Assembly (NCBI RefSeq): GCF_003967015.1
Contig: NZ_AP017560.1
Span: forward strand, 3,532,048 to 3,596,047
Source of the DNA: Pseudanabaena sp. ABRG5-3
GTDB lineage: Bacteria; Cyanobacteriota; Cyanobacteriia; Pseudanabaenales; Pseudanabaenaceae
Length of the DNA: 64,000 bases
Reading direction: 5' to 3'
Positions 41,617 to 64,000 of the stretch are shown in pieces. A program made the translations under genes and the position numbers. The first letter of the stretch is position 1, and each line of letters opens with the position of its first letter. Under the pieces are notes generated by a model. The model was not told the DNA's origin, made no database searches, and saw nothing but the letters and a program-made list of their open reading frames with translations.

Positions 41617-41637
41617 TTGAGAGATTGCTAAATAATA

Positions 41638-43238: not shown

Positions 43239-43246
43239 TAGCACTA

Positions 43247-45775: not shown

Positions 45776-45839
45776 GGCAAAAATTCTTCTCCTAAATCAC
45801 AAAATTTGATCGCGCCTCACAACAGTCCATCTAAACTTT

Positions 45840-45892: not shown

Positions 45893-45922
45893 ATTTTATA
45901 ACTATGCTGAGATACTTAATAC

Positions 45923-46017
45923 CAAAACTCAAAATGGCTATGCCATTTTGTAGTTTTAAAACCCCTCAATGGGTTTGGTTTTTAATTCACGAAAGTGTGA
46001 CAACACTTTCGTGAATT
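45923..46017 (-). terminator. Two hairpins after TPR-CHAT 2
   Basis: The first pairs bases around 45923-45938 with 45942-45958 (one bulge, loop TAT); the second is a perfect 15-bp stem (45984-45998 with 46003-46017). They follow the stop of TPR-CHAT 2 and may end the transcript or reduce read-through into TPR-CHAT 1. Confidence 0.6.
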
Positions 46018-46031
46018 GGGATAACAAATGA

Positions 46032-48677: not shown

Positions 48678-48800
48678 CGTCAACATACTCACATTTACAT
48701 CAAAACCCGCAGTAGCACAACAGCCAGCATAAAGCGATATTGCCAAAAACAGGCGATCGTTACAAAAAACATAACCAATCCAAATATGCTGATTTCTAAC

Positions 48801-48938
48801 ATGTCTGTAGATGTTGTGGCACAACTGACTGGACTGACTGCTAAGCAAGTGCAGAAACTGCAAAAGCTATCAAATAAAAATTCCCAAATCACCTTTGCTC
48901 TTTTGCAAAGGAACCAGTTTTTTGTGATCGTTTTGTAA
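48801..48938 (+). pseudogene. Remnant of an Rpn/transposase-associated nuclease gene (tentative)
   Basis: A 45-codon frame on the opposite strand between TPR-CHAT genes 2 and 3 reads 'SVDVVAQLTGLTAKQVQKLQ', which resembles the C-terminal 'I-x-x-I-A-Q-x-T-G-L-S-x-x-x-I' tail of Rpn-family (recombination-promoting nuclease) proteins. The rest of the gene is missing upstream, so it would be the 3' scar of an inserted gene. Resemblance is from memory, and the frame is short. Confidence 0.4.
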
Positions 48939-48945
48939 ATACTGC

Positions 48946-51900
48946 CTACAGCCCATTTCCAATCGCAAAAAATGCCGACCAATAATTTGGATGATTGTAT
49001 TTTGGTGATTTGATCAAAGTAACTTGCGCTCTATTTAATGCTTCAGTGGGGGTGATATCGCCTTTTTTGAGTTCCCGATAAAAAGCTTCCATTAATGCTT
49101 GAGTACCTTCATCGTTGACAGACCAGAGAGAAGCGATCGCATTTTTAGCGCCTGCTTTCTGGACTTGATAGCCAAATCCTAAAATTTCTACACCATCGCC
49201 AAGCTTACCAACTCCAGTCTGACAGGCACTCAGCACGATCAAATCTATATTGGGAATCTGCCAGTCGGTAATTTCATTGAGACGGATTTTGTCGCCATTA
49301 CCAAAAATGATGAAGGAGTTATCAGGTGTACCCGTATTAAACTCAGCATGGGTAGCAAGATGGAGAATATTATGATTTTTGAATTTCGATTCGATCGCTT
49401 GGCGGCTAAAGTTCTCTTCGGTTAACGTGACTGAGTTTTGAAATGAATTGGCGATCGCTTGAATTTCTTTAACCGTAGCAGGTAAAGCGGTTTGTCCAAA
49501 TTTTCGCTCACCTGATTTACCGCCAAAGGCTCCTGCGAGGATGTTGGGTGAGTTTTTGGGTTGTGTAGAAAAGTCGAAGAGACTATAGGCAATCAAGTTA
49601 CTAATGCGGTACTTCTCTGCTAGCCATTGTTTGCCATCATAGAGTGCAGCTATGGGAATATAGCGTAGTTGTCCATCTGGTGCATAGAGGATCGTTGTAG
49701 CTTTGGCTTGGACAAGTTCGGTTTCTATGGGTTTAATCAGCAATTTGTAGAGTTGTGCCGCAGGTTTTTTGACATCTTCGTTGCTAGCGTCAAGGAGTGC
49801 AGCCCTAAAATCAATCACTAGGTTTTCTAGTTCTTTTTGCGATATTTTGACGGTGCGGCTGATGGGCGTGGTGTTGGGTGAGAAGAGGATGATTTCGATG
49901 CGATCGCCTAAAATTAAGGGATAAAGTAAAGCTGTTCCTTGAGGGATTTTTTGGAGATAGTCGGGTACTTTGTTGATTTCTGATTTGGGAAGTTGTTGGA
50001 TTTTGTTAGCAAGTTGTCTGTTAATTTCCTTGCTATTCTCAAAGCTAACAGCTAACAGCTTATCGCTAATCGCTTTCTCTGGTTCTAACAATCGAACACC
50101 TTGCGCCGATCTATCACTGCCTTTTATATTTTTGAGATAGTCTTCGAGTTCTTGAAATTTGAGCAAATCGATGACCTGTAGAGCCTCCATAACTCGCCCT
50201 TGTTTAATTAGCAAATCAGCAAGACGCTTATAACCATCAGCAACTGTTTCTAAATAGGATTGCTGAGCGGTTTTGGGGAGTCCCCGAATATCTTTGCGAA
50301 TAGATTCACTAATATTGATCGATCTTTTATAAAAGAGAATCGCCAGTTCGGGTTGTTGTTGGGCAGTAAATAAATAGCCCAAATTTTTGAGTGTAGCGCT
50401 TTCACCATAGCGATCACCTATTTGTTGAACGGTGGCTAGAGCTTGATAGTAATAATTCAATGCTTTGGGGTACTGCCTTGAAATTGTGTAGGCACTACCC
50501 AGATTTGTGAGAACACTACCTAGTCCCTCGCGATCACCGATTTCCTGATAGATATTTAAAGACTGCTGGTAAAACTCAATTGCTTTTAAATATTGTTTTT
50601 GGTAGTGATAGGCAACTCCTAAATTGTTTAGCCATGCTCCTTCATTTTGGCGATCGCCTATTTGTTTGGCACTCGCGAGGGACTGTTGATAAAACTGAAT
50701 TGCCTTTGGATATTGTTGGAGATAGTAGTAAGCATTGCCTAAATTGCCTAGCAATTTCCCTTCCCCCTTGAGATCGCCTATTTGCTTAGTGATCTCAAGG
50801 GACTTCTGATAAAAATCAAGCGCTTTTTGGTATTGTCCTAGAGAATTATGGACATTGCCCAGATTATTGAGCCAAATTGCGGTGCTATGACGATTATTAG
50901 TTTGCTGAGCGATCGCTAAAGACTGTTGATAAAATTCAATCGCCTTTTGGTACTGTCCCAAATAATAGTAAGCGTTACCTAAATTGCCTAAAGTGATTCC
51001 TTCGCCTTGACGATCGCCAAGCTTTTGGTCAATGACCAAAGACTGTTGAAAAAATTCAATTGCTTTTTGATACTGTCCCAAAGAGTTGTAAGTACTTCCC
51101 AAATTACCAAGCGCACTTCCTACACTTTTTTGATCGCGAAGTTGCTTAGCAATGACTAAAGATTGTTGATAAAAATTAATTGCTTCTTGGTACTTTCCAA
51201 GGGAATTATAAGCGTTGCCCAAACTCAAAAGTATGGTTCCTTCCCCATCGCGATCGCTAATTTGCCTAGCAATTGCTAAGGATTGATGGAAAAGTTCGAT
51301 GGCTTTTTGATGTTGACCGATGGAGTCGTAGGTATTGCCTAAATTACCAAGTGCAAGACTTTCCCATTGGCGCTTGCCCATTTGTTTAGCAATTGCTAAA
51401 GACTGTTGATAAAAATCAATTGCTTTTTGATATTGTCCGAGGGAATTATGCACATTCCCTAAACCATTAAGAGAATTTCTCTGTATATCACGAATCACAA
51501 TGCAGCTTTTATCTTTTGGCAAGTTAGCACAAACACTTTCGCTAGTTTGCTCAGCGATTGCTAGAGATTGCTGATAAAATTCAATGGCTTTTTGCTTTTG
51601 TCCTAGAAAGTTATACACATTGCCTAAACTATTTAATACATTGCTTTGCGATTGGAGATCGGCAATTTGAATAGCAATTTCCAATGCTTGCTGGTAATAT
51701 GCGATCGCTTTTGCAGAATCTTTTAAACTGCGATAGACTTGTCCCAAGTTAATCAGAATTTTGGCTTCATTGCTGCGATCTTTGAGACTACGATAAATTT
51801 GTAAAGCTTGTTCCAAAGATTTTAATGCTTCTGGATATTGTTTTGCCTGATATAAGGTTCGGGCTTGTTCTCGCAACCGCTCTGCTTGTATTTTTGAGTT

Positions 51901-52053
51901 TAGGATTGTTTGGTCTTGAGGAGTTGTGATTGAACCTTTTTCTTGCGCCAATAAACGATCATCTTGACTTATGGGGATGGAAGTACAGGCTAAACAGGTT
52001 GTTATAATAATTGGGGGTAAGATTTTTCTGAATGTGATTCTATGCTTACTCAT
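48946..52053 (-). CDS. TPR-CHAT protein 3, exported
   Basis: The largest copy, 1035 residues. It has an N-terminal hydrophobic segment ('ILPPIIITTCLACTSIPIS') that serves as a signal peptide, possibly lipid-modified at the Cys, then twelve TPR units and a degenerate thirteenth; unit 3 has an insertion with two Cys ('SVCANLPKDKSCIVIRDIQR'). The linker and CHAT domain are intact, His about 902 and Cys about 944. With paralogue 4 upstream by only 46 bases it is likely in one operon. The 3' half is very similar to that of paralogue 2 at DNA level. Confidence 0.92.
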   Translation of the reverse strand: MSKHRITFRKILPPIIITTCLACTSIPISQDDRLLAQEKGSITTPQDQTILNSKIQAERLREQARTLYQAKQYPEALKSLEQALQIYRSLKDRSNEAKILINLGQVYRSLKDSAKAIAYYQQALEIAIQIADLQSQSNVLNSLGNVYNFLGQKQKAIEFYQQSLAIAEQTSESVCANLPKDKSCIVIRDIQRNSLNGLGNVHNSLGQYQKAIDFYQQSLAIAKQMGKRQWESLALGNLGNTYDSIGQHQKAIELFHQSLAIARQISDRDGEGTILLSLGNAYNSLGKYQEAINFYQQSLVIAKQLRDQKSVGSALGNLGSTYNSLGQYQKAIEFFQQSLVIDQKLGDRQGEGITLGNLGNAYYYLGQYQKAIEFYQQSLAIAQQTNNRHSTAIWLNNLGNVHNSLGQYQKALDFYQKSLEITKQIGDLKGEGKLLGNLGNAYYYLQQYPKAIQFYQQSLASAKQIGDRQNEGAWLNNLGVAYHYQKQYLKAIEFYQQSLNIYQEIGDREGLGSVLTNLGSAYTISRQYPKALNYYYQALATVQQIGDRYGESATLKNLGYLFTAQQQPELAILFYKRSINISESIRKDIRGLPKTAQQSYLETVADGYKRLADLLIKQGRVMEALQVIDLLKFQELEDYLKNIKGSDRSAQGVRLLEPEKAISDKLLAVSFENSKEINRQLANKIQQLPKSEINKVPDYLQKIPQGTALLYPLILGDRIEIILFSPNTTPISRTVKISQKELENLVIDFRAALLDASNEDVKKPAAQLYKLLIKPIETELVQAKATTILYAPDGQLRYIPIAALYDGKQWLAEKYRISNLIAYSLFDFSTQPKNSPNILAGAFGGKSGERKFGQTALPATVKEIQAIANSFQNSVTLTEENFSRQAIESKFKNHNILHLATHAEFNTGTPDNSFIIFGNGDKIRLNEITDWQIPNIDLIVLSACQTGVGKLGDGVEILGFGYQVQKAGAKNAIASLWSVNDEGTQALMEAFYRELKKGDITPTEALNRAQVTLIKSPKYNHPNYWSAFFAIGNGL

Positions 52054-52099
52054 AGTAGAAGTTTGCCTCCTATATAATCTAGAAATTCATACCTAATCT

Positions 52100-54634
52100 C
52101 TACAAGCCATTACCAATCACAAAAAATGCTGACCAGTATTTAGGATGATTGAACTGCGACGACTTAATTAGTGAAATTTGAGCTCTGTGCAATGCTTCAG
52201 CAGTAGTAACATTACCTGTTTTGAGTTCCTTATAAAATGCTTCCATGAGAGCTTGTGTGCCTACATCATCAACCGACCAGAAGGATGCGATCGCCTGTTT
52301 TGCACCAGCTTTCTGAATCTGATAGCCAAAGCCCAAAATCTCGACCCCACTACCGAGTTTGCCAACCCCAGTCTGACAGGCACTGAGAACAATTAATTCC
52401 ACATTGGGAATTTGCCAAGTAGTCAGTTCATTCAAGCGGACTTTATCCCCATTGCCAAAGATGATGAACGAATTTTCAGGCACACCATCATTAAACTCAG
52501 CATGGGTCGCAAAATGGAGAATATTGTAGCTATTGAATTTTGCTTCAGTATTAGCTCGGCTAAAGTCATCCTCTATTAAAGTAAAGGAGTCCTGAAATGA
52601 ATTGGCGATCGCGATTACTTCCTTGAGCGTAGCAGGTAAACCCTGTTGTCCAAATTTTTTGGCTCCCGCCTTGCCACCAAAGGCTCCTGCGAGAATCCGT
52701 GGCTGCGTTTTAGGCTTAGGAGAGAAGTCGGAAAGGGTATAGGCAATGAGGTTGCTAATGCGATATTTTTCGCCGAGCCACTGCTTGCCATCATTGAGAG
52801 CGCTTAGGGGGATATAGCGCAAAATGTCATCAGGGGCATAGAGAATTGTCTGAGCTTGAATTAGCTCTGTCTCAATAGGTTTAATTAATAGTTTATAGAG
52901 CGCAATTGCAGGTTCTTTATAGTCTTCAGAGCCAGCATCGATCAACCCAGATTTGAATTCGGCAACTAACGCTTCTAATTTATCTTTAGTGATATTGACG
53001 GTGCGCTGGATGGGAAGATTCTGCTGCGAAAAGAGGATAATTTCTAAGCGATCGTCTAAAATGAATGGATAGAGTAATACAGTTCCTTTTGGGATTAGAT
53101 TGAGATAGTCAGGGACTTTGTTAATTTCGGTTTTAGGAAGTTGTTGAATTTGATTGGCAAGTTGATTGTTGATGTCTTTGCTATTGTCAAAGCTAACGGC
53201 TAATAGCTTATCGCTAAGAGCTTTTTCTGGTTCTAAAAACCTGACACCTTTTGCCGTGCGATCACTACCTTTGATATTTTTAAAATAGTCCTCAAGTTCT
53301 TGCACCTTCAGTAAATCAAGGACTTGTAATGCCTCCATGACCCGTCCTTGTTTGAGCAAGAGATCTGCGAGATGGCGATAGCGATCAGCGACGGTGGCTA
53401 AATAGGATTGACGATCTGCTTGGGCGAGAGCACGAATATCCTTACGGATAGATTCGGTGATATTGATCGAAGACTTATAGAAAGCGATCGCTAAATGGTT
53501 TTGAGCGAGATTAACTAAAGTCGCAGCAATCTCAGCATTTGCCTGCGCTTCTCCCCTGCGTTCACCAATTTCCCGCACAATTGTGAGATGCTGCTGATAC
53601 AAATCTAATGCTTTTTCATATTGTTTGAGGGCATAATAAGCATTGCCCAAATTACCCAAGGTTGCACCTTCCCCTTGACGGTCTTTGATATTGCGGACAA
53701 GCTCTAAGTTTTGCTGTAAATACTCAATAGCTTTTTGATGTTGTCCAAGGGCATTCAAGGTATTGCCTAGATTACCCAAAGTCGTGGCTTCACCATTGCG
53801 ATCGCCAATTTGCTGATAGATGACTAGTGCCTGTTGATAGACCTCAGTGGCTTGCTGGTATTTGTTCAAGTATCCATAGGCATTACCTAAATTTTCGAGT
53901 GCTTTCGCTTCGCCACGTCGATCCGCGATCGCTCGAACAAGCTGTAAACTCTGCTGGAGCCATTCCAAGGCTTTTTGATATTGACCTAAATAAGCATAAG
54001 TATTGCCAATATTTCCCGTAGCATAGGCTTCTCCTTGGCGATCGCCGATGGTTTTGGTGGCGGCTAAATATTGCTGATAGAAGTCTAAGGCTTTTTGATA
54101 TTGTCCTAGAGCCACATAGTTATTGCCTAAGAGACCAAGACTGAGACTTTCACCTTGGCGATCGCTCAGGTTTTGAGAAATTTTCAGGGCTTGCTGATGA
54201 TGCTCAATTGCCTTTGGATATTGTCCCAAGGCAAAGTAAGTAGCTCCTAAATTATTAAGTACTTTCACTTCCAAATTGGAAATTTGCAATTGTCTGGCAA
54301 TTTCGAGACTTTGGTTAAAAGCACTAATGGCGCGATCGTATTGGCTGAAAATAACGTAGATATTGCCGATCAATAAGCGCACATTGGCTTGATTGGGATA
54401 ATCGTTGATTTCTTGATAAATCTGCAATGCTTGCTCAGCAGATGCCAAAGATTCACGAAACTGGCTCAATTGCGCCTGCTGAAGGCTTTGATTGAATAGG
54501 CGATCGGCTTCCATTTTGCGCGATTGCATCGGTTGAGCTTGGACAGTCATAGATGACATTGCCAGCGATAAACCAAAACCGCAACTATAAATTCCAGTTA
54601 AAACGAACGTGAGCCAATACGATTGAGAAGCCAT
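52100..54634 (-). CDS. TPR-CHAT protein 4, exported
   Basis: This 844-residue protein has a hydrophobic N-terminus ('SYWLTFVLTGIYSCGFGLSL', 'AMSSMTVQAQ' cleavage region), eight TPR units and a degenerate ninth, and the CHAT domain with His about 711 ('HFATHAEFN', F replacing L) and Cys about 753 ('LSACQTGVG'). Its TPR units are the most varied of the set. It follows paralogue 5 by only 25 bases and precedes paralogue 3 by 46, so 5-4-3 form a likely transcription unit. Confidence 0.92.
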   Translation of the reverse strand: MASQSYWLTFVLTGIYSCGFGLSLAMSSMTVQAQPMQSRKMEADRLFNQSLQQAQLSQFRESLASAEQALQIYQEINDYPNQANVRLLIGNIYVIFSQYDRAISAFNQSLEIARQLQISNLEVKVLNNLGATYFALGQYPKAIEHHQQALKISQNLSDRQGESLSLGLLGNNYVALGQYQKALDFYQQYLAATKTIGDRQGEAYATGNIGNTYAYLGQYQKALEWLQQSLQLVRAIADRRGEAKALENLGNAYGYLNKYQQATEVYQQALVIYQQIGDRNGEATTLGNLGNTLNALGQHQKAIEYLQQNLELVRNIKDRQGEGATLGNLGNAYYALKQYEKALDLYQQHLTIVREIGERRGEAQANAEIAATLVNLAQNHLAIAFYKSSINITESIRKDIRALAQADRQSYLATVADRYRHLADLLLKQGRVMEALQVLDLLKVQELEDYFKNIKGSDRTAKGVRFLEPEKALSDKLLAVSFDNSKDINNQLANQIQQLPKTEINKVPDYLNLIPKGTVLLYPFILDDRLEIILFSQQNLPIQRTVNITKDKLEALVAEFKSGLIDAGSEDYKEPAIALYKLLIKPIETELIQAQTILYAPDDILRYIPLSALNDGKQWLGEKYRISNLIAYTLSDFSPKPKTQPRILAGAFGGKAGAKKFGQQGLPATLKEVIAIANSFQDSFTLIEDDFSRANTEAKFNSYNILHFATHAEFNDGVPENSFIIFGNGDKVRLNELTTWQIPNVELIVLSACQTGVGKLGSGVEILGFGYQIQKAGAKQAIASFWSVDDVGTQALMEAFYKELKTGNVTTAEALHRAQISLIKSSQFNHPKYWSAFFVIGNGL

Positions 54635-54659
54635 AGCAGCACCTTAATTATTTAATTGC

Positions 54660-57326
54660 TTACAACCCATTGCCGATCGCAAAAAATGCTGACCAAAAAT
54701 AGGGATGATTGTAATTTGAAGACTTAATCAAAGAAATTTGCGATCGCCTTAATGCCTCAGCAATGGGGATATCGCCCTTTTGTAACTCCTTATAAAAAGC
54801 ATCCATGAGTAACTGTGTCCCCGTATCATCAACTTTCCACAGAGAGGCGATCGCCGATTTTGCCCCTGCCTTCTGGACTTGATAGCCAAATCCCAAAATT
54901 TCGATCCCTTCCCCCAAGGCCCCGATCCCAGTCTGACAAGCACTGAGAATGATCAGATCTACATTGGGGATATCCCAATCGCTAATTTCATTTAATCTAA
55001 TTTTGTCGCCATTCCCAAAAATGATAAATGAGGTGTCAGGTGTACCAGTATTAAACTCAGCATGGGTAGCTAAATGCAAAATATTATGGTTTTTAAGTCG
55101 TGATTCAAATTCTTTGCGGCTGAACTGTTCTTCTTTGAGTGTGATGGAATTTTGAAAAGAATTCGCGATCGCCTGTACTTCTTGAATCGTGGCTGGCAAT
55201 CCCGTTTGTCCAAACTTCTTCTCGTTACCCTTACCACCAAAGGCTCCTGCAAGAATACTCGGCTGCATTTTTGCTTTGGATGTAAAGTCGCTCAGGCTAT
55301 AGGCAATCAGATTACTAATGCGATATTTCTCAATTAACCAATGTTTGCCATCGCTAGGTTTTGCTTCATATAGAGCCGAGAGGGGAATGTAGCGCAATAG
55401 GCTATCAGGAGCATAGAGAATTGTCTCCGTATTTGCCTGCTTGAGTTCTGTCTCAATCGGCTTAATTAAGATCTGATAGAGTTGGATCGCTGGTTCTTTA
55501 AAATCTTCAGAACCTGTATCTAATAAACTAGATTTGAAATTTTCGATTAAAGTTTTCAAATCATCCTGTTTAATATTGACAGTACGGCTAATCGGCGGCT
55601 GGTTTTGAGAGAATAGAATTAGCTCTAACCGATCATCAAGAATTAGTGGATAGAAGAGAACAGTTCTCTGAGGAATCTGTTTGAGGTAATCAGGAACCTT
55701 GTTGATTTCAGCTTTAGGGATTTGTTGGATTTGACTAGCAAGTTGGCGATTAAGTTCAGCGATTTGGGCAAACTTAACTGTGGAAACATCACGGATAAAA
55801 GCCTGCTCCACATCTAATAGTTGAATTCCCCGTAATGTTCTATCGGTTCCCTTAATATTTTTGAGATAGTCTTCCAGTTCTTGCACCTTGAGTAAGTCAA
55901 TCACCTGCAAAGCTTCCATAACGCGACCCTGTTTCAGTAAAAGGTCAGCAAGACGGCGATAGGAACTCTCAATAGTAGATAAGTAAGACTTTTGATCTTC
56001 CTTGCTCAAACCACGGATATCTTTGCGAATTGCTTCACGAACATTTATTGATCGCTTATAAAACAGAATTGCTAACTCAGGTTGTCCCTGTTGGGAGAAT
56101 AAATATCCAAGCTGACTCAGGGCGCTTCCTTCGCCAGCGCGATTGCCCATTTGAATAGCCGTAGCTAATGCTTGTTGATGATAGTCAAAGGCTTGATCAA
56201 CTTGCCCCAGTGCATTGTAGGCAGTGCCTAAACTGCTGAGGGCAGTTCTGATGCCATCGCGATCGCCAATTTGTTTAGCAATTTCTAGACTTTGCTGGTA
56301 GTAGGCAACGGCTCTCTGGCTATCACCGAGGGCACGATAGGAAATTCCGAGATTGTTTAGTGTCCGTCCCTCTGTATAGCGATTACCAATTTCACGGGCA
56401 ATCACTAGGGCTTGCTGGAAATAGCCGATCGCTTTGGGATATTGTCGAAGACTGTTATGGACAATTCCCAGATTATTTAAAGTATCAGCCTCACCGCTAC
56501 GAGCGCCAACTTGCTTTTTGAGAGTTAAGGATTGCTGGTAATAATCAATGGCTTTCTGGTACTGCCCCAAAGAATCGTATGCCCCACCAAGGGTATTTAA
56601 GGCATCGGCTTCACCATTGCGATCATTAATTTGCTTTTTGATAACAAGAGATTTTTGATATTGCTCAATCGCTGTTTGATACTTACCAAGACCATCGTAG
56701 GCAATGCCAAGGGCGATATACAAATCTGACTCACCATCGCGATCGCCAATTTGCTTCAAGATGGGTAAACATTTTTGATAATAATCAATTGCCTTAGGAT
56801 ATTGTCCGAGCAGATTGTAGGCATTGCCGAGATTGCCTAACGAGCGACCTTCCCCATAGCGATCGCCAGTTTGTTTTTTAATTGCCAGAGCTTGCTCATG
56901 ATATTCGATGGCTTTGGTGTACTGACCCAAGAAATAATAAGTGACCCCTAAATTAGCGAGGGAATTACCCTGATTATTGCGATCGCCAATTTCTTGAGCA
57001 ATGGCTAAGGATTGCTGGTGATATTCAAGGGATTTTTGATACTTACCTAGAGAACTATAGGCATTACCAATATTATTGAGGGCATTGCTTTCCCCCTTAC
57101 GATTTTTAATTTCTCGATAAATTTGTAGCGATCGCTCAAATATGGGTAACGCCTCGCGAAATTTGCTCACTCGATTTAGCTGATTACCTTGTTCTAGCAG
57201 TCGATCTGCTTCAGCTTTACGATTTGTCTCTGTCTCAGATTGAGCCTGTACTTCCACACAATTGAGCATTTGTATAGGTAAGCCAGTCAACATCAACAAA
57301 ACCGCAATACCAAAACCCTTACGCAT
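54660..57326 (-). CDS. TPR-CHAT protein 5, exported
   Basis: First of the array in the direction of transcription, 888 residues from the ATG at 57326. That start begins the signal peptide 'MRKGFGIAVLLMLTGLPI'; the frame is open to 57425, but those 33 codons would include a perfect hairpin. Nine TPR units and a degenerate tenth are followed by the linker and CHAT domain, His about 755 and Cys about 797. The CHAT part has a small insertion ('YEAKPSDGKHW') relative to the others. Confidence 0.9.
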   Translation of the reverse strand: MRKGFGIAVLLMLTGLPIQMLNCVEVQAQSETETNRKAEADRLLEQGNQLNRVSKFREALPIFERSLQIYREIKNRKGESNALNNIGNAYSSLGKYQKSLEYHQQSLAIAQEIGDRNNQGNSLANLGVTYYFLGQYTKAIEYHEQALAIKKQTGDRYGEGRSLGNLGNAYNLLGQYPKAIDYYQKCLPILKQIGDRDGESDLYIALGIAYDGLGKYQTAIEQYQKSLVIKKQINDRNGEADALNTLGGAYDSLGQYQKAIDYYQQSLTLKKQVGARSGEADTLNNLGIVHNSLRQYPKAIGYFQQALVIAREIGNRYTEGRTLNNLGISYRALGDSQRAVAYYQQSLEIAKQIGDRDGIRTALSSLGTAYNALGQVDQAFDYHQQALATAIQMGNRAGEGSALSQLGYLFSQQGQPELAILFYKRSINVREAIRKDIRGLSKEDQKSYLSTIESSYRRLADLLLKQGRVMEALQVIDLLKVQELEDYLKNIKGTDRTLRGIQLLDVEQAFIRDVSTVKFAQIAELNRQLASQIQQIPKAEINKVPDYLKQIPQRTVLFYPLILDDRLELILFSQNQPPISRTVNIKQDDLKTLIENFKSSLLDTGSEDFKEPAIQLYQILIKPIETELKQANTETILYAPDSLLRYIPLSALYEAKPSDGKHWLIEKYRISNLIAYSLSDFTSKAKMQPSILAGAFGGKGNEKKFGQTGLPATIQEVQAIANSFQNSITLKEEQFSRKEFESRLKNHNILHLATHAEFNTGTPDTSFIIFGNGDKIRLNEISDWDIPNVDLIILSACQTGIGALGEGIEILGFGYQVQKAGAKSAIASLWKVDDTGTQLLMDAFYKELQKGDIPIAEALRRSQISLIKSSNYNHPYFWSAFFAIGNGL

Positions 57327-57393
57327 AGGATTAAGCCTTTCTGAAAACTGTTGCCACTGAATATTACAAGATTTCCTCGAATCTGCAAAACAA

Positions 57394-57420
57394 AAGAAGC
57401 GACGCAATGCGTCGCTTCTT
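57394..57420. terminator. Hairpin between the FKBP gene and the TPR-CHAT array
   Basis: A 12-bp perfect stem (57394-57405 with 57409-57420), loop AAT, in the spacer where the FKBP gene ends and the TPR-CHAT 5 gene starts. The FKBP gene lies upstream on the same strand; the hairpin begins beyond its stop (57451), so it can serve as its terminator. Confidence 0.65.
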
Positions 57421-57450
57421 GGCATAGGCTTATGTCAGCCATACTGCAAT

Positions 57451-57993
57451 TTACGAAATACGTAATAGTTCCACATCAAAAATTAAGGTGGCATTAGGAG
57501 GAATGACTCCACCTGCTCCACGAGCGCCATAGCCTAGGTCTGGAGGAATAATCAAGGTGCGGCGATCGCCAACGCGCATATCTGCTAATCCTTCATCCCA
57601 TCCTTTAATTACCTGACCAACGCCAAGCTTGAAAGAAAAAGGACTATTGCGATCGCGAGAACTATCAAATTTAGTTCCATCTTCGAGAGTGCCTGTGTAA
57701 TGTACAACTACGGTATCGCCCTTCTTAGGTGTTGCACCTGTACCAGCAGTGATTACTTTGTATTTAAGCCCAGTGCCAGTTTCTTTGATTTCGGAATCAC
57801 TCATATTAATTAAAGGTGCTTCTGCTATTTTTACTTCTGTTTGATTTGGTACGCCTGTAGAGGGTACACCTGTAGACACGCTAGCAACTGCGGTCTGTCC
57901 ACCCGTAATTTGGGCAAACACAATGACCAATACAGCGACTGCCATAATGCCAAAGCTAATCAAAATTCCTTTCAAGGCTATATCTCCAATCAA
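57451..57993 (-). CDS. FKBP-type peptidyl-prolyl cis-trans isomerase
   Basis: The 180-residue protein has an N-terminal hydrophobic segment ('[20 protein letters not shown]', about residues 9-28), a Ser/Thr/Pro-rich linker and a single FKBP domain with '[18 protein letters not shown]' (Y and F/D of the active pocket), '[20 protein letters not shown]', '[14 protein letters not shown]' and '[14 protein letters not shown]'. It should be exported or membrane-anchored and help fold lumenal or periplasmic proteins. It lies just upstream of the exported TPR-CHAT array on the same strand. Confidence 0.94.
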
Positions 57994-58028
57994 TTACGTG
58001 ATGACTTCGCTTTTGGCATCTTATACCA

Positions 58029-58060
58029 ATTAAGTGAAGTGTGACTATACTTCACTTAAT
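58029..58060. repeat. 12-bp hairpin
   Basis: ATTAAGTGAAGT at 58029-58040 pairs with 58049-58060. The flanking TATACCAAT...AGTGAAGTG resembles the sequence at 61698, so this may be a dispersed repeat. Confidence 0.6.
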
Positions 58061-58184
58061 CAAACGTGAGTCCGAGATCACCATTTACGCCCTGCAAAGC
58101 ATGGTGCAAATGGCACAAAATGGTAAGAATCGCTTTGCAATTGTTACCATTTTGCACTTTCGTCGAACTAACTAGTCCAAAACA

Positions 58185-58213
58185 AAAAAGAGTTCGCTAA
58201 GCGAACTCTTTTT
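58185..58213 (-). terminator. Terminator of tRNA-Phe
   Basis: A 13-bp perfect stem (58185-58197 with 58201-58213, loop TAA) with A and T runs, 5 bases beyond the 3' end of the tRNA gene. Confidence 0.85.
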
Positions 58214-58218
58214 AATGA

Positions 58219-58291
58219 TGCCAGGAACGAGATTTGAACTCGTGACACGTGGATTTTCAGTCCACTGCTCTACCAACTGAGCTATCCCGGC
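58219..58291 (-). tRNA. trnF-GAA: tRNA-Phe (anticodon GAA)
   Basis: On the minus strand the 73 bases start GCCGGGATAGCTCAG and end with TCCTGGCA. The acceptor stem GCCGGGA/TTCCTGGC pairs, the D arm GCTCAGTTGGTAGAGC, anticodon loop CTGAAAA (anticodon GAA) and T arm ACGAGTTCAAATCTCGT all fold. CCA is not encoded. Confidence 0.97.
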
Positions 58292-58424
58292 TGGGCGCTT
58301 TTTTTAGCGCTTGATTAAGATAACACTATTTAGGATTTTCAAGCAATAGTTTTTCAAAATTTTTTCAAAATTTAGATCTTGCCCCTAAACAACAAGTGCA
58401 GACATGAGTTCTGCACGTTAAATA

Positions 58425-58463
58425 GGTAAGGATGGGCGGCGCGAAGCGCCGCTCATCCTTACC
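58425..58463. repeat. Dispersed GATGGGCGGCGC hairpin, copy 3
   Basis: An 18-bp stem with one wobble (58425-58442 with 58446-58463), loop GAA, matching the hairpins at 41638 and 43190. It lies after the YdcF-like gene stop, on whose strand it could terminate. Confidence 0.85.
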
Positions 58464-58496
58464 ACAATATAGGGGAGGGGCTATCTGAACTTGTTC

Positions 58497-59015
58497 CTAT
58501 GAACCTGTAACTAGCCAAAATACTGATCGCAATCCATCACGCAAAGATTTAGTAGGACTTTCAGACTTGATGCTTGAAGGAATAGTAACGGGATACATCT
58601 CAATACCACGACTACCTAACACAATCTTGCCAATTACCAGCGCACGGGGCATATGAAAATCTGACGTAATCACATAGACATCTGTAATATTACGTTTCTG
58701 AAGCTCTTTAACCATGATTGTAAAGTTAGAAACAGTATCCACAGCCCGATAGTCTAAATGGATGCGACTTCGATCTACACCTGCGCGATCAAATACATAT
58801 TTGGCATATTCCTCTGGACTGCCTGATGAAACAAAGATGGGTAATTGCGGATGCTGTAGTGCAAATTGAGCAGCAAATTTTTCGCGGCTGGGAGAACCGC
58901 CTAACACCAAGATTGCCTGTGGCTCTCTTGTAGATGGACTGGCAATGATTGGGGGCAAGCATGGCAAACCAAAGATCATGCACCCAGAACCAATTAACCC
59001 AGATAAAGCTGTCAT
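58497..59015 (-). CDS. YdcF-like (DUF218) protein
   Basis: The 172-residue protein has the DUF218 pattern: an N-terminal hydrophobic segment ('LSGLIGSGCMIFGLPCLPPI'), then 'AILVLGGSPSREKFAAQFAL', 'IFVSSGSPEEY', 'DYRAVDTVSNFTIM' and 'VYVITSDFHMPRAL', where S-D-F-H-M-P-R-A is characteristic. Related proteins (YdcF, SanA, ElyC) act in envelope physiology; the reaction is unknown. The ATG at 59015 is chosen because GAGGGAG is 6-7 bases upstream; the frame stays open to 59096. Confidence 0.8.
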   Translation of the reverse strand: MTALSGLIGSGCMIFGLPCLPPIIASPSTREPQAILVLGGSPSREKFAAQFALQHPQLPIFVSSGSPEEYAKYVFDRAGVDRSRIHLDYRAVDTVSNFTIMVKELQKRNITDVYVITSDFHMPRALVIGKIVLGSRGIEMYPVTIPSSIKSESPTKSLRDGLRSVFWLVTGS

Positions 59016-59115
59016 GGAACTCCCTCTAGGGAAAGGGTTAATCATCATCATTTTTGTGTTGCGAACCAGCAAAATATTATCTGCATGATGGAACAATATG
59101 CAACAAGATTTTTCT

Positions 59116-59160
59116 AGATTTTTAAGAGCTACACCCTAAGGGTGTAGCTCTTAAAAATCT
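59116..59160 (-). terminator. 21-bp perfect hairpin at the 3' end of recR
   Basis: Positions 59116-59136 pair with 59140-59160 (loop TAA). The recR stop codon lies inside the arm. Confidence 0.8.
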
Positions 59161-59747
59161 AGTTCACGTCTGCCCTCGATCGCTTTAGCGAGTGTTACCT
59201 CATCTGCATATTCTAAATCACCACCCATAGGAATACCAAAGGCAATCCGCGTAACTTTTGTAAAGGGTTTTAATAATCCGCCAACATAGAGTGTAGTGGT
59301 TTCCCCTTCAACACTGGGGGCGATCGCCATAATTACCTCAGCCACTTTATTACCACTGACGCGACGGACAAGGCTTTGAATATTTAATTGATCGGGACTA
59401 ATGCCATCCATTGGTGAAATGAGACCACCAAGCACATGATATTTACCGCGATATTCGCGAGTTTTTTCTAGGGCAATGAGGTCGCGAGAGTCAGCAACTA
59501 CACAAATAATCGAATTATCGCGACTAGGATGGGCGCAAATCTCGCAGATGGGTTCCGCCGATAAATGCCCACATACGGTGCAACTACCTACCTGTTGCTT
59601 GGCTTGAATTAATGCTTGGGCGAGGGCTTCGATCTCTTCGGTGGGACGCTTGATGATGTGAAGGGATAAGCGTTGAGCAGTTTTTGCACCTACTCCGGGG
59701 AGACGCTGCAATTGTTCGATGAGATTGGCAAGAGGTCGAGTATACAA
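59151..59747 (-). CDS. recR: Recombination mediator RecR
   Basis: RecR works with RecF/RecO to load RecA at gapped DNA. The 198-residue protein opens '[20 protein letters not shown]' with the helix-hairpin-helix '[12 protein letters not shown]', carries a C4 zinc finger ('[16 protein letters not shown]', residues about 54-69), a Toprim domain ('[17 protein letters not shown]', 'YHVLGG') and the C-terminal '[20 protein letters not shown]'. The family start aligns to a TTG at 59747; a GTG at 59801 would add 18 residues and reach into a palindromic repeat, so I take the shorter form with moderate certainty. Confidence 0.92.
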
Positions 59748-59785
59748 AACAGCGAAGAGATAATGTAACGTTACTAATTTTAACG

Positions 59786-59855
59786 TTACAGCGCTTTGCA
59801 CCGCCTTAAAACAGAGAGAGATTTTTGAAAGCGCGGCTTCTCCACGCTTTCAAAA
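59786..59855. repeat. Degenerate element of family B
   Basis: GTTACAGCGCTTTGC at 59786-59800 is the inverse of the right end of the elements at 60585 and 61888, and it is followed by a related AGAGAGATTTTTGAAAGCG. A hairpin pairs 59822-59832 with 59845-59855. The copy lies between recR and the next gene. Confidence 0.6.
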
Positions 59856-59859
59856 CACT

Positions 59860-60444
59860 TTATTGGTTGGTTTTGGCAAAGCGATTTTGTAAATCGTAGG
59901 CTTCTCGCTCCATGAGATTATTTTCGTACTTTTGTTTGGCGCGTTTATATTCCACAAAATATTGATAGCCAAACTGATCTAATCCTCCATTTTGGGCGCA
60001 TTGGCGTACATGCACCATTTCATGAGCTAGAACTGCCAACTGCTTAGGATCTTCAGATTGGTATGGATCGCGGAGATAGATGCGATCGCAATAGGTTTGG
60101 GCGATTGTCTCTACTTTGCCAAAATGAACAGCGACATTGCCCAAGATCCAGCGATCCATCATTTGAGCATCGTAAATCACTGTGACACGGTCAATATAAT
60201 CGATAAAATATCGCCTTAGATAACGTTTCTGGACATTATCGAGAGGTCTGCCTTCGCCATTTTTAGAGCGCATCGTTCTTGCCGCCGCTTGATAGGCGAT
60301 CGATCCCGCCTGTCCCCAAGCTTCTTCCGCTAGGCTAGATTTTGCCTCCGAATTCGCAAAAAAACTTAGATCTGACACCCCAATTGCGGTTACTAATGCT
60401 AGGGTCAACAAAATTAAAAAGCTGATTCTCCGAATGCTATTCAT
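59860..60444 (-). CDS. Exported putative zinc metallopeptidase (HExxH)
   Basis: The 194-residue protein begins with a signal peptide ('RISFLILLTLALVTAIGVS') and has 'VLAHEMVHVRQC' near residue 140, a zinc-binding H-E-x-x-H, followed by a C-terminal 'MEREAYDLQNRFA' whose Glu could be the third ligand (gluzincin-like; similar to DUF4157 proteins). The central 'LRRYFIDYIDRVTVIYDAQM' is helical. Function unknown; periplasmic location expected. Confidence 0.7.
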   Translation of the reverse strand: MNSIRRISFLILLTLALVTAIGVSDLSFFANSEAKSSLAEEAWGQAGSIAYQAAARTMRSKNGEGRPLDNVQKRYLRRYFIDYIDRVTVIYDAQMMDRWILGNVAVHFGKVETIAQTYCDRIYLRDPYQSEDPKQLAVLAHEMVHVRQCAQNGGLDQFGYQYFVEYKRAKQKYENNLMEREAYDLQNRFAKTNQ

Positions 60445-60472
60445 TAGGAATTACTGAGCTTTACGCTTCTAG

Positions 60473-60506
60473 TATAGATAGAGGTTGTTAGTTGGCTCTA
60501 TCTATA
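60473..60506. repeat. 11-bp inverted repeat
   Basis: TATAGATAGAG at 60473-60483 pairs with CTCTATCTATA at 60496-60506, just upstream of the metallopeptidase gene, so it could be an operator or a hairpin. Confidence 0.5.
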
Positions 60507-60538
60507 CAGACAATCTCAACTATTAATTAACTATTCCT

Positions 60539-60568
60539 CCCCCAAGAGAGTTGCAACTCTCTTGGGGG
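60539..60568. repeat. 30-bp perfect palindrome without loop
   Basis: CCCCCAAGAGAGTTG is directly followed by its reverse complement (60539-60568). It lies between PP2C and the exported peptidase. Confidence 0.85.
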
Positions 60569-60584
60569 GTATGTATTAACCTAC

Positions 60585-60692
60585 TTACAGCCTTGTTGAG
60601 GCTGAAAATACTACAGAGAAATTTTTGAAAGCGGGGCAAAGCCCCGCTTTCAAAAATTTCTCTGGGTTTCAAGACAGCGCAAAGCGCTGTAA
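60585..60692. repeat. Element of family B, copy 1 (108 bp)
   Basis: It starts TTACAGCCTTGTTGAGGC and ends AGCGCAAAGCGCTGTAA; inside is a long stem (60615-60637 region with 60641-60665) with the apex GGGGC-AAA-GCCCC. A second copy with the same ends and a different stem is at 61888-61994. Each ends 1-6 bases from the stop codon of a minus-strand gene. Confidence 0.8.
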
Positions 60693-61499
60693 CTAACTAT
60701 TTGGATTTAATTCGTTAGATACAATTACTACAGTGATATTGTCTCGACCACCACGCAACTTTGCCGCTTCGACTAGGGCTTCGGCAGCTTGTTGGCAGTT
60801 ACGAGTATTCTTGAGTTGGTGAGTGATGCGATCATCGCTTAGTTCCTCAGTTAATCCATCACTACAGATCAAGAAGCGATCGCCAGGTTGCCACTCGATA
60901 TCTTGTGCTGTAATTGATTTTAAGTCTTCACGACCCAAGCATTGTAGGAGCATATGTCGCCAAGGATGGCTTTTGGCATCGTCGGCATTAACTACCCCCG
61001 TTTGAATTGCGCGGGCAATCCATGTATGGTCATCACTGATTTGTTCTAATTTTGCTCCCCGCAAGCGATATAGTCGTGAATCCCCGATGTGGCAAAACCA
61101 AGGCTGTTCATCACGAAATAGTAGTAAGACTACGGTTGTTCCCATATCCGATCGCACAGGATTAGCCATTTGATCATTAATAATGGCTTGGTTTGCCTTG
61201 TCAATCGCATCCTGCATCAGCTTTTGAGGTGTTGTCTCGACATCCCAAAGTGCGTCTAAACATTCACGGATGGAATCGACAGCAATCTTACTTGCTACCT
61301 CACCCCCTGCGTGTCCTCCCATACCATCAGCAACTACAAAAAATCGTCCATCAGGATCGATATAGTAAGAATCTTGATTGGCTGATCTGACACAGCCCGT
61401 ATCGGTTGCTCCCGCAAATAGACGCTTCATGTTAGGTGGTTCGACTCGACGTATTGAATTAACCAGTTCTGCTACCGCAATCTTTAGTTTAACCTTCAT
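60693..61499 (-). CDS. PP2C-type serine/threonine protein phosphatase
   Basis: This metal-dependent phosphatase (268 residues from the ATG at 61499) has the PP2C motifs: 'SANQDSYYIDPDGRFFVVADGMGGHAGGE' region (D in 'NQDS' and 'ADGMGGH'), 'SDMGTTVVLLLF', 'CHIGDSRLYRLR', 'LICSDGLTEELSDD' and 'GGRDNITVVIV', so all metal ligands are present. It is of the small bacterial Stp1/PrpC type and soluble. In cyanobacteria such enzymes dephosphorylate PII and other proteins; the target here is not known. A second ATG at 61430 gives the core domain alone. Confidence 0.92.
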   Translation of the reverse strand: MKVKLKIAVAELVNSIRRVEPPNMKRLFAGATDTGCVRSANQDSYYIDPDGRFFVVADGMGGHAGGEVASKIAVDSIRECLDALWDVETTPQKLMQDAIDKANQAIINDQMANPVRSDMGTTVVLLLFRDEQPWFCHIGDSRLYRLRGAKLEQISDDHTWIARAIQTGVVNADDAKSHPWRHMLLQCLGREDLKSITAQDIEWQPGDRFLICSDGLTEELSDDRITHQLKNTRNCQQAAEALVEAAKLRGGRDNITVVIVSNELNPNS

Positions 61500-61601
61500 A
61501 GGCAAAAACTACAGTAATATTCATAAACTATCATTAAAACCCAAGATTAGCATCTGCAATGCCTTAGGCGATATTTAAGTAGCCCAACATCGTTATAAAC
61601 T

Positions 61602-61654
61602 AAACCCAGATTCTTGTGCTGCCCACGTAGCCAGCAGCACAAGAATCTGGGTTT
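61602..61654. repeat. 20-bp hairpin
   Basis: AAACCCAGATTCTTGTGCTG at 61602-61621 is the exact inverse of 61635-61654. The outer arm resembles the hairpin at 45840. Confidence 0.8.
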
Positions 61655-61785
61655 TAAGTTGACTTACGCTTGACTACTGAAATACTGATCTTATAGCGTA
61701 TACCAATCTAGTGAAGTGGAGGATTGTGTCCCCACCGAAGGCGGGGACACAATCCTCTCTACCTCGCTTGCTTGAGAAGCGGTAT

Positions 61786-61880
61786 AAGTAGCTAGCTGGG
61801 TACAATTAAAGAAGCCCGTAGCGCACGTACAGCTTGCAGACTAGCTTTGGTTTTTTATATTTAATTACGCTCAGCTACTT
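61786..61880. repeat. Element of family A, copy 2 (95 bp)
   Basis: Left AAGTAGCTAGCTGGG...AATTAAA and right TTTAATTACGCTCAGCTACTT are inverted repeats that match the ends of the element at 12121. The interior differs. Confidence 0.75.
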
Positions 61881-61887
61881 AGTTCTA

Positions 61888-61994
61888 TTACAGCCTATTG
61901 AGGCTTTGAGTAGTACAGAAATATTTTTAAAAGCGGCGCTCCGCGCCGCTTTTAAAAATATTTCTGGGTTTGTACTAAGCACAAAGCGCTGTAA
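61888..61994. repeat. Element of family B, copy 2 (107 bp)
   Basis: It shares both ends with the copy at 60585 (TTACAGCCT...TTGAGGC and ...AAAGCGCTGTAA) but the central stem is AAAAGCGGCGC-TCC-GCGCCGCTTTT. It ends 6 bases before the stop of the ABC1 gene. Confidence 0.8.
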
Positions 61995-61999
61995 ATGAA

Positions 62000-63691
62000 T
62001 CATCGTTCAGGACGATCAATTCGCGATAACAATCGTAATAAAACTAATACAAAAACTACGGCAAACAGTGTTGCCACGATCGCAGGAACAAACCAGCCAT
62101 TAACTAATAAAAGGGTGGCGCATAATAGGCAAGTTGCTCCTAGCAGAGCATAGATTGCGCCGATGCCCACATTACTGAGGCGACGTAATAGGCGATCAGT
62201 TTCTTGGGATTTGATTCTGACCCGAATATCACCACGTTCGAGTTTGGCGAGGGTGTCATCAATTCTGCGTGGTAAGGCGATCGCGGTATTACTTACCTGC
62301 GCGGCCTGTCTACCTAGTTCACCGAGAAAAGCGGTAGATAAATTACCTGACTCCTTATTACTGCCATTTTCCATAAGATTGGTTGCGTAGGGTTTTGCGA
62401 CTTCCATAAAGTTAAAACTAGGATCAAGTCCTTTGCCCAGACCTTCAAGGGTTGAGAGCGCCCGCATGACAAAGGTAAAGGTGGCGGGAAATCGAAATGG
62501 TTGGTCATAGGCAATATCGTACAAATCATCACTGATCGCTGCAACTGATTGCTTATCCATAGGTTGCCCCATGAAGTTGTCGAGCATATACTGCACCGAT
62601 CGCCTAATTGGTCCAATGTCACCTTTGACTTCTAAAGCGCCTAATTCGATTAAGGAATTAACCACTGCCTCCGCATCTTTTTTAGCAATTCCAAAGAAAG
62701 TGCGTAGTAATTTATCACGGGTGATGGTTTGGATCTGTCCCATCATTCCAAAATCATAGAAAATCAGTTCACCTTTGCCAGTGACGGCTAAATTGCCGGG
62801 GTGGGGATCGGCATGGAAAAAGCCATGATTAAGTAATTGTTCGAGATATGACTCTGCACCGATGCGAGCAATGATTTTGCGATCAATCCCTGCGGCTTCG
62901 AGAGCATCGTAGTTACTCACCTTGATCCCCGGCATATATTCCAGAGTTAGCACTCGCCGAGAGGCATAGCGCCAATAAACGCGAGGAACCATAATGCGGC
63001 GATCGCCTCGAAAGTTACGACGAAAGGTATCAGCATTACGACCTTCATTGAGATAATCTGCTTCCTCGTAGAGAATTTTGCGACATTCTTCATAGATGCC
63101 AACCCAGTCTCGCCCCCGACCATATTTAGGATGATTTTGGAAATATTCCGCAATTCTTTTGAGAATTCCTAAATCGATCGCAAATAATTTCAATAACCCC
63201 GGACGTTGTACCTTAACCACGATTTCTTCGCCCGTATGTAGTTGCGCCTTATGCACCTGTCCTAGGCTTGCTGCGGCAAGGGGTACAGGATCAAAGTAAC
63301 CAAACATTTGATCAACGGACTTGCCTAAATCTGCCTCGATAATTTGCTTCGCTTTTTCCGCAGTAAATGCAGGAACCTTGTCCTGTAACTTAGATAGCTC
63401 CTCAACGGACTCCGTTGGCAAAATATCGGCACGGGTGGAAAGCAATTGCCCAACTTTAATAAATGTGGGACCCAGTTGTAGCATCGATTCCCTTAGCCAA
63501 ATTGCCCGTTTTCGGGTGCGTTGTTTGACTTTGGATTCAGTTTTGCCCCCGATATAGCTCCATTTTTTGCCATCGAGCCAGATCATCCAAGAAAAGGTGA
63601 GAACAGTGCGCCAGATGTCTATGGTGCGGGCGAGTTCAGAGTAGTTGTCACGACTCCAGCGATAATTGGGTTCAGAAGATAAAGCTGACAC
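62000..63691 (-). CDS. ABC1/UbiB/AarF family protein kinase-like
   Basis: The 563-residue protein belongs to the UbiB (ABC1, AarF) family of atypical kinase-like ATPases linked to quinone synthesis and to membrane lipid handling; in cyanobacteria several paralogues occur. 'LGPTFIKVGQLLSTRADILP' (the K-x-G-Q motif, about residue 76), 'PLAAASLGQVHKAQL' (Ala-rich loop), 'VKVQRP', 'GFFHADPHPGNLAV' and 'IFYDFGMMGQI' are all present. The C-terminus has two membrane segments ('IYALLGATCLLCATLLLVN', 'VPAIVATLFAVVFVLVLL'). It is monocistronic. Confidence 0.93.
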   Translation of the reverse strand: MSALSSEPNYRWSRDNYSELARTIDIWRTVLTFSWMIWLDGKKWSYIGGKTESKVKQRTRKRAIWLRESMLQLGPTFIKVGQLLSTRADILPTESVEELSKLQDKVPAFTAEKAKQIIEADLGKSVDQMFGYFDPVPLAAASLGQVHKAQLHTGEEIVVKVQRPGLLKLFAIDLGILKRIAEYFQNHPKYGRGRDWVGIYEECRKILYEEADYLNEGRNADTFRRNFRGDRRIMVPRVYWRYASRRVLTLEYMPGIKVSNYDALEAAGIDRKIIARIGAESYLEQLLNHGFFHADPHPGNLAVTGKGELIFYDFGMMGQIQTITRDKLLRTFFGIAKKDAEAVVNSLIELGALEVKGDIGPIRRSVQYMLDNFMGQPMDKQSVAAISDDLYDIAYDQPFRFPATFTFVMRALSTLEGLGKGLDPSFNFMEVAKPYATNLMENGSNKESGNLSTAFLGELGRQAAQVSNTAIALPRRIDDTLAKLERGDIRVRIKSQETDRLLRRLSNVGIGAIYALLGATCLLCATLLLVNGWFVPAIVATLFAVVFVLVLLRLLSRIDRPER

Positions 63692-63841
63692 GGCTCACTA
63701 ACGATGGAAGGACTGCTAAAACTTGTAACAAACCTTTACATCTTAACCTGAATATTTACACTTTTTAATATTAGGAAACAAGTGTATATCCATTGAGAGA
63801 GTACGCCCATTAGGGGCGTACTCTCTCAATACTTTCAAATA

Positions 63842-63912
63842 GAGCTAAAACCTGTAGCGAACGCGCAGCGTTCGCTACAGGTTTTGGGATTTTATATTTA
63901 ATTGCGCCCAGC
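63842..63912. repeat. Partial element of family A
   Basis: A 17-bp-plus stem (AAAACCTGTAGCGAACGC with GCGTTCGCTACAGGTTTT, loop GCA, about 63847-63885) is followed by a right end TTTTATATTTAATTGCGCCCAGC as in the element at 12121. The left end is not conserved. Confidence 0.6.
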
Positions 63913-63919
63913 CCATTAA

Positions 63920-64000
63920 CTAAACTTGATCGTATCCCACAGCGCGATCGCGACCTAGTTCTTTAGCTTTATAGAGTGCGCGATCGGCTCGAATCAGTAA
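63920..64000 (-). CDS. Diguanylate cyclase, C-terminal end only
   Basis: The last 26 codons of a gene continuing past the right edge. They read 'IRADRALYKAKELGRDRAVG', the usual end of a GGDEF domain (A-D-x-A-L-Y-x-A-K-x-x-G-R-x). Together with 33609-34400 it is the second GGDEF protein here. Confidence 0.85.
   Translation of the reverse strand, partial: LLIRADRALYKAKELGRDRAVGYDQV

What the first reader, a model, noticed from the sequence alone, without database searches (positions are those of the whole stretch)
59786..61994. Family B: a second palindromic element family with copies at three sites in 2.2 kb
Copies at 60585-60692 and 61888-61994 start TTACAGCCT..TTGAGGC and end ..AAAGCGCTGTAA with different inner stems; an inverted, degraded copy is at 59786. 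Both full copies end within a few bases of a stop codon, so they may be 3'-end elements that also terminate transcription.
Basis: seen in the sequence. Interest (0 to 1): 0.5.

Follow-up and report, generated by a model that had tools for sequence, protein, structure and literature searches.

The report
IS630-derived palindromic mini-transposons in a cyanobacterium
The repeats are about 105-letter mini-transposons, apparently moved by a common transposase type, scattered mostly between genes of the cyanobacterium Pseudanabaena; their hairpin arms seem to be recopied from each other and the hairpin tip flips, so their perfect pairing need not mean an RNA function.

Summary
Confirmed, and larger than three copies. 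Full copies: 60586-60691 and 61889-61993; a left-truncated inverted copy starts at 59787. An automated scan of fetched loci gives 74 sites in this genome, 0 wholly inside my predicted genes. Matches occur in 26 of 26 genomes searched in the genus and 0 of 12 from other genera; named records with the left end are all Pseudanabaena. Three clean empty sites in a relative have one TA where the element has two: TA-duplicating MITEs. Left ends match terminal repeats of IS630-type insertion sequences (B1 24-25 of 30 bases, B2 23-25); B1's right end matches none tested. Between orthologous copies the core hairpin changes in compensated pairs, and the 3-base loop is exactly reverse-complemented at 6 of 13 loci (same 3, other 4). 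Arm homogenisation with spacer inversion is the published signature of replication template switching. Mid-stem mispairs are rare (18 of 1944 cells). Copies are enriched just behind stop codons (26 against 12.1 expected), in both orientations, but lack a convincing U-tract; a terminator role is unproven. Verdict: new member of a known kind, with an unusually clear template-switching record.

The parts
60586..60691 (+). Full copy 1 of the MITE (subfamily B1), TA to TA
   Evidence: orthologous occupied copy in relative G029, whose left part is replaced by another palindrome
60586..60615 (+). Left end of copy 1: a variant (one extra T) of the B1 left end that resembles an IS630-type terminal repeat
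   Evidence: B1 representative left end matches IS ends 24/30 and 25/30; copy 1's own left end was not scored
60614..60664 (.). Core hairpin of copy 1: 24-bp perfect arms, loop AAA
   Evidence: RNA fold of the whole element z = -10.6
60675..60689 (.). Right-end hairpin CAGCGC-AAA-GCGCTG; subfamilies share this right end (they were found by it)
61889..61993 (+). Full copy 2 of the MITE (B1; its left end matches the IS left end 25/30), TA to TA; not seen at this place in the relatives
61916..61966 (.). Core hairpin of copy 2: 24-bp perfect arms, loop TCC
59787..59862 (-). Copy 3, inverted and truncated (far bound approximate): right end and imperfect core kept, left end lost; also present in G029, G032, G013 and G014
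60693..61505 (-). Context: Stp1/IreP-type PP2C phosphatase gene, stop codon 1 nt from copy 1
62000..63691 (-). Context: ABC1/UbiB-like gene (TIGR01982 below its cut-off), stop codon 6 nt from copy 2
59860..60444 (-). Context: small gene whose stop codon lies at the base of truncated copy 3
59151..59801 (-). Context: recR ORF (true start probably inside, near 59750); copy 3 lies upstream of it

Best explanation
Family B is a set of short non-autonomous transposons (MITEs) of the IS630/Tc1-mariner kind that insert at TA and duplicate it. Shown: TA at both ends with variable neighbouring bases, single TA at three clean empty sites, left ends resembling IS630-type terminal repeats, spread through one genus. 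Inferred: IS630-type transposases move them in trans; copies persist where they do little harm, between genes and often just behind stop codons. After insertion the long palindrome is a template-switching hot spot: during replication the nascent strand copies one arm from the other (so a mutation is erased or written into both arms), and a switch to the other strand flips the 3-nt loop. This explains why inner stems differ between copies yet stay paired. Any effect on transcript ends would be a side effect, not the reason for the pairing.
For: TA ends and variable neighbours. Clean empty sites at L013, L055 and the B2 copy of L011 against G029. End similarity: B1 left 24-25/30 to an IS with 12 copies in this genome (100000 shuffles reach 20 at most); B2 left 23-25/30 and B2 right 21/30 (p = 0.0005) to the IS in L261. 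One copy's 260-aa transposase frame matches NF033545 IS630 and DDE_3. 26 of 26 genus genomes against 0 of 12 others. Pairing in 162 copies (criterion: at least 16 of 22 pairs): 3687 of 3888 cells Watson-Crick; pairs 8-19 only 18 of 1944 not, with three or four pair types at each of these positions. Orthologues at 13 loci, 20 pairs each: loop inverted 6, same 3, other 4; pairs 8-19 compensated changes 12, other changes 4, all 4 in damaged copy L078. Template switching between inverted-repeat arms is reported to homogenise arms and invert spacers (PMC8604942, abstract and section 6) and to maintain hairpins (PMC8794818, abstract and one section).
Against: B1's right end matches no IS end tested (13-15/30, all p > 0.05), so its recognition is unexplained; B3's right end is marginal (16/30, p 0.011-0.039). 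G031 (76% complete) has no transposase match and several genomes only distant ones, although all 26 carry the element. Over all 20 pairs the orthologues show 18 compensated but 24 uncompensated changes, 18 of them in tip pairs 1-7. 5 of the 18 (4 of the 12 in pairs 8-19) come from the rearranged locus L044/L231. Ortholog pairs come from fetched stretches only. Equal G.T (53) and A.C (49) and balanced loops are weak tests, because the transcribed strand of each copy is unknown. Transposition was not observed.
Confidence: 0.76

Rival explanations
1. The elements are functional 3'-end RNA structures (bidirectional terminators or mRNA 3' stabilisers) kept by selection, which would explain the compensated stem changes.
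For: Strong fold, z = -10.6. Enriched within 20 nt of stops, 26 against 12.1. One strand of copy 1 scores as terminator-like.
Against: No real U-tract; the other strand of copy 1 and both strands of copy 2 are not flagged. Both ends face stops (21 and 19). The loop flips in place at 6 of 13 orthologous loci, whereas stable rRNA loop families are 8- to 66-fold commoner than their reverse complements (PMC8794818). Sites differ between close relatives. No Rfam family reaches its gathering score at the elements.
Confidence: 0.17
2. Derivatives of an IS200/IS605-type element, suggested by hairpins near both ends and by TTAC at the start of copy 1.
For: Hairpins near both ends; TTAC at copy 1.
Against: The base before TA varies (T, A, C, G); TA duplication at three clean empty sites; left ends resemble IS630-type repeats.
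Confidence: 0.03
3. REP/REPIN-type palindromes moved by a RAYT transposase.
For: Short extragenic palindromes in many copies.
Against: Ends are TACAGC/GCTGTA, not GTAG or CGTC tags (tags recalled; named in the title of PMC3733652, seen in search listings only); TA duplication. RAYT genes were not searched.
Confidence: 0.02
4. Compensated stem changes arise by gene conversion or re-insertion between dispersed copies rather than by template switching within one copy.
For: Many similar copies exist in this genome; site 1 differs from its G029 orthologue at 3 adjacent pairs with 97-98% identical flanks.
Against: Some orthologue pairs differ by one paired change or little more than the loop (L002/L211, L003/L192, L030/L221). 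Unrelated palindromes in the genus also flip: 3 of 6 matched pairs (site 1 not counted).
Confidence: 0.12

Closest known systems
RUP (repeat unit of pneumococcus)
   Same: About 107 bp, many copies, predicted to fold, ends similar to an IS630-type element, IS630-Spn1 (PMC3049150, passages); TA target recalled.
   Different: Different host; sequences not compared here. Here several subfamilies with different left ends share one right end, and the core loop flips.
ERIC (enterobacterial repetitive intergenic consensus)
   Same: Intergenic MITE; insertion at gene 3' ends reported to affect transcript levels (PMC10969869, passages); TA duplication recalled.
   Different: Different host; sequences not compared here.
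Cyanobacterial MITEs such as Nezha and the Anabaena/Microcystis MITEs
   Same: MITEs in cyanobacteria (PMC10969869, passages and reference entries).
   Different: The Nezha paper itself was not read; no sequence comparison was made.
Template-switch evolution of inverted repeats (yeast genes; rRNA hairpins)
   Same: Arm homogenisation, compensatory changes and spacer inversion (PMC8604942, abstract and section 6; PMC8794818, abstract and one section).
   Different: Here on dispersed copies of a bacterial MITE and on unrelated palindromes of the same genus.

Membership tests
MITE of the IS630/Tc1-mariner kind | TA target-site duplication | tested here: met
   Single TA at 3 clean empty sites (L013, L055, L011-B2) of 7 distinct loci flagged empty; the other 4 were rearranged or readable at one junction only. 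Further loci flagged empty (against G032, or the reverse) were not clean
MITE of the IS630/Tc1-mariner kind | Terminal inverted repeats related to an IS630 element | tested here: inconclusive
   B2 both ends (23-25/30 and 21/30) and B1 left end (24-25/30) match; B1 right end 13-15/30, not above chance
MITE of the IS630/Tc1-mariner kind | Short, non-coding, dispersed in many copies | tested here: met
   About 105 nt; 74 sites by an automated criterion, a few of which may not belong
MITE of the IS630/Tc1-mariner kind | Mobilised in trans by the transposase | not testable with these tools
   Needs an experiment; presence/absence between relatives is consistent
IS200/IS605-derived element | No target duplication, insertion next to a fixed tetra/pentanucleotide (recalled) | tested here: not met
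   TA duplicated, neighbouring base variable
REP/REPIN | GTAG/CGTC-type tag (recalled) | tested here: not met
   Ends are TACAGC/GCTGTA
REP/REPIN | Associated RAYT gene | not tested
   No search made
Intrinsic terminator | GC-rich stem followed directly by a U-tract | tested here: inconclusive
   One of four strand/copy combinations flagged, weak tail
Known Rfam RNA family | Match over the family's gathering score | tested here: not met
   None at the elements in 57000-64000; sub-threshold hits only

The most novel reading that the evidence does not exclude
In Pseudanabaena, arm-to-arm copying and loop flipping at palindromes is so frequent that loop orientation is nearly randomised between species whose flanks are still about 86-98% identical, for these MITEs and for unrelated palindromes. 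The genus would then be a natural high-rate template-switching system in which strong stem covariation arises without any RNA function, possibly because of a particular replication or repair state.
Probability: 0.4. Interest if true: 0.7.

Novelty: new member of a known kind. Interest (0 to 1): 0.42.

Why it matters
The element itself is an ordinary kind of bacterial MITE; no description of it showed among the papers listed by four searches (only the top listings were seen). Its value is as a test bed: dozens of copies in this genome, matches in 26 genomes and shared insertion sites would let arm correction and loop inversion be rated in nature. It also warns that covariation, the usual proof of a functional RNA stem, can come from a DNA-level copying process.

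Tried and rejected
Rejected: an IS200/IS605 origin (TA duplication, variable neighbouring base); REP-type tags. Weakened on re-check: the equal numbers of G.T (53) and A.C (49) mispairs and the balanced loops do not by themselves exclude RNA selection, since copies may be transcribed from either strand; the in-place loop flips carry the argument. Left open: a terminator role; what binds B1's right end.

mis-paired or mis-centred some ortholog cores (L030, L104, L054, L078), with tip strings entered by hand, replaces them. Rfam gave nothing over threshold at the elements.

Rows dropped before counts: one search's totals leave out site 3 (two comparisons, truncated copy) and L038/L190 (arms out of register), all printed there. 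Not used at all: L200/L213 (different junctions), L044 against G032, and G029/G032 comparisons at L146/L147 where the target holds other palindromes. L044/L231 was kept although rearranged; L054/L232 shares only the left junction. The 74 sites were found by right end plus a core of at least 16 of 22 pairs, near-duplicates and sites close to a locus end removed; elements with other right ends would be missed, and a few (such as those at L094, L102, L013 plus strand) may not belong. Left bounds of truncated copies are approximate. One search uses 72 of the 74 and its null leaves out TA inside stop codons. Genes come from my own simple codon-usage caller. One search's 162 entries pool several genomes, include orthologues, and can count a symmetric copy twice.

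Full report
What is there. With both TA dinucleotides the full copies span 60586-60691 and 61889-61993. Each has a left end (TACAGCC..TTGAGGC..), a 24-bp perfectly paired core with a 3-nt loop, and a right end containing CAAAGCGCTGTA, which in copy 1 forms its own small hairpin. The third copy starts at 59787 on the minus strand and has lost its left end; the stop codon of the neighbouring gene lies at the base of its hairpin. The full copies lie 1 nt behind the stop of a PP2C phosphatase gene and 6 nt behind the stop of an ABC1/UbiB-like gene.

How many. The right-end 13-mer with up to one mismatch occurs 90 times in the genome, against 9 for the reversed control. A scan of fetched loci for the right end plus a core with at least 16 of 22 pairs gives 74 sites; a few may not belong. 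Subfamilies differ in their left ends but share the right end by which they were found: B1 (TACAGCCTGTTGAGG..), B2 (TACAGCAGTT...GATCAAA..), B3 (TACAGCCTATTTAGGG..). With a typed B1 consensus, 26 of 26 genomes held for the genus and 0 of 12 from seven other genera of the family match (hits per genome are capped and count both strands of the palindrome, so no copy numbers follow). An exact left-end pattern in the named collection hits 14 stretches from four Pseudanabaena records and nothing else. I infer that the window is Pseudanabaena.

What kind. Ends are TA and the neighbouring base varies. In relative G029 three sites occupied here are cleanly empty with a single TA: L013, L055 and the B2 copy of L011 (the last with one more T beside it). 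Four more loci flagged empty in that call, and those flagged, are rearranged or readable on one side only. So TA is duplicated on insertion. The genome has 12 copies of a 1032-1034-bp insertion sequence. One copy's 260-aa frame matches NF033545, IS630 family, E = 3e-43, and DDE_3. Its ends match a representative B1 left end at 24 and 25 of 30 bases; 100000 shuffles against the left end reach 20 at most. B2's left end matches another IS, in L261 of relative G022, whose transposase is 35% identical, at 23-25 of 30, and B2's right end matches it at 21 of 30 (p = 0.0005). B1's right end matches none of the IS ends tested above chance (13-15 of 30). B1 may be a chimera with a B2-type right end; this is inference.

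Occupancy. Read by eye (relatives readable: 21 at site 3, 24 at site 1, 25 at site 2): copy 3 is shared with G029, G032, G013 and G014; copy 1 at the same junction with G029; copy 2 is seen only here. Some other genomes have B elements or fragments of their own, and other palindromes, in the same gaps.

Placement. None of the 74 sites lies wholly inside my predicted genes. Elements lie within 20 nt of a stop 26 times against 12.1 for random intergenic TA sites, and within 60 nt 40 times against 24.0 (0 of 5000 draws as high in either). Starts are not enriched: 4 against 7.5 within 20 nt, 19 against 22.0 within 60 nt. Left and right ends face stops about equally, 21 and 19. The terminator scan flags the core on one strand of copy 1, tail TGTAGTATTT, and neither strand of copy 2. 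The bias may reflect selection against insertion upstream of genes.

The palindrome. In 162 copies, 3687 of 3888 pair cells are Watson-Crick; in pairs 8-19 counted from the loop only 18 of 1944 are not, although three or four pair types occur at each of these positions. The selection criterion (16 of 22 pairs) favours paired copies. G.T (53) and A.C (49) mispairs are equally rare; loops occur in both orientations, TTC 37 and GAA 34, TTT 34 and AAA 28 (summed over subfamilies; less even within them). Because the transcribed strand of each copy is unknown, these two balances are weak evidence against RNA selection. The stronger evidence is in place: at 13 orthologous loci (20 pairs each) the loop is the exact reverse complement in 6, the same in 3, otherwise different in 4. 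There are 18 compensated pair changes and 24 others; in pairs 8-19, 12 compensated and 4 others, the 4 all in the damaged copy L078 and 4 of the 12 from the rearranged locus L044. At window site 1 the flanks are 97-98% identical to G029 while three adjacent core pairs differ, all compensated, with loops AAA and GAA. Other palindromes at the same gene gaps: over nine genome comparisons 7 palindromes could be matched, one being site 1 (other); of the 6 unrelated ones 3 loops are inverted and 3 the same.

Mechanism. Template switching between the arms of inverted repeats is reported to homogenise arms and invert spacers (PMC8604942: abstract and section 6 read) and to create and maintain hairpins with multi-base compensatory changes (PMC8794818: abstract and one section read). 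I therefore take the pairing mainly as a DNA-copying outcome and the element as a MITE, with any transcript effect secondary.

Comparison. The nearest known kinds are RUP of the pneumococcus, about 107 bp with ends like IS630-Spn1 (PMC3049150, passages), and ERIC (PMC10969869, passages). No description of this element showed in the listings of four paper searches, which show only the top 12-20 papers each; most subscription papers are not held.

Noticed in passing
window 41634-41676, 43196-43240, 58419-58463: Copies of another palindrome family (about GGATGGGCGGCGC-GAA/TTC-GCGCCGCCCATCC) with the loop in opposite orientations in different copies.
   Followed up: no
window 11520-11558, 12143-12190, 31546-31593: A further palindrome family with a variable inner stem.
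   Followed up: no
window 43200-57100: Five related stretches 2.6-3.2 kb apart and long arrays of 120-bp (40-codon) repeats, possibly TPR-type genes (not tested).
   Followed up: no
L162/L163 and L160/L165, gaps around the PP2C gene: Orthologous unrelated palindromes differ by exact loop inversion and paired arm changes between close species.
   Followed up: partly
L193 (G029) against L011 (G000): A different insertion holding two palindromes with ends ACGTCAGTT..CTCGCGT next to TTAATTA, absent from this genome at that site.
   Followed up: no
L127, L142 (this genome); L162 (G025): Other elements with DDE_3 transposases have TATAGCA ends; palindromic stretches in L162 start TATAGCAATCCTAAAT or TATAGCAAAGCAAG, suggesting more IS/MITE pairs.
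   Followed up: no
L105 (this genome): A copy with right-type ends on both sides that is one palindrome of about 100 nt.
   Followed up: no
L042 (this genome): A predicted gene ends 18 nt inside the right end; read inward that end gives TAC AGC GCT TTG CGC TGA, so an insertion at a stop codon's TA could supply a new stop (not verified).
   Followed up: no
IS copies L128-L139: In 11 of 12 copies the transposase lies in 123- and 205-codon frames, as in many G029 copies, which may mean frameshifting in translation.
   Followed up: no
window 58219-58291: tRNA gene on the minus strand.
   Followed up: no
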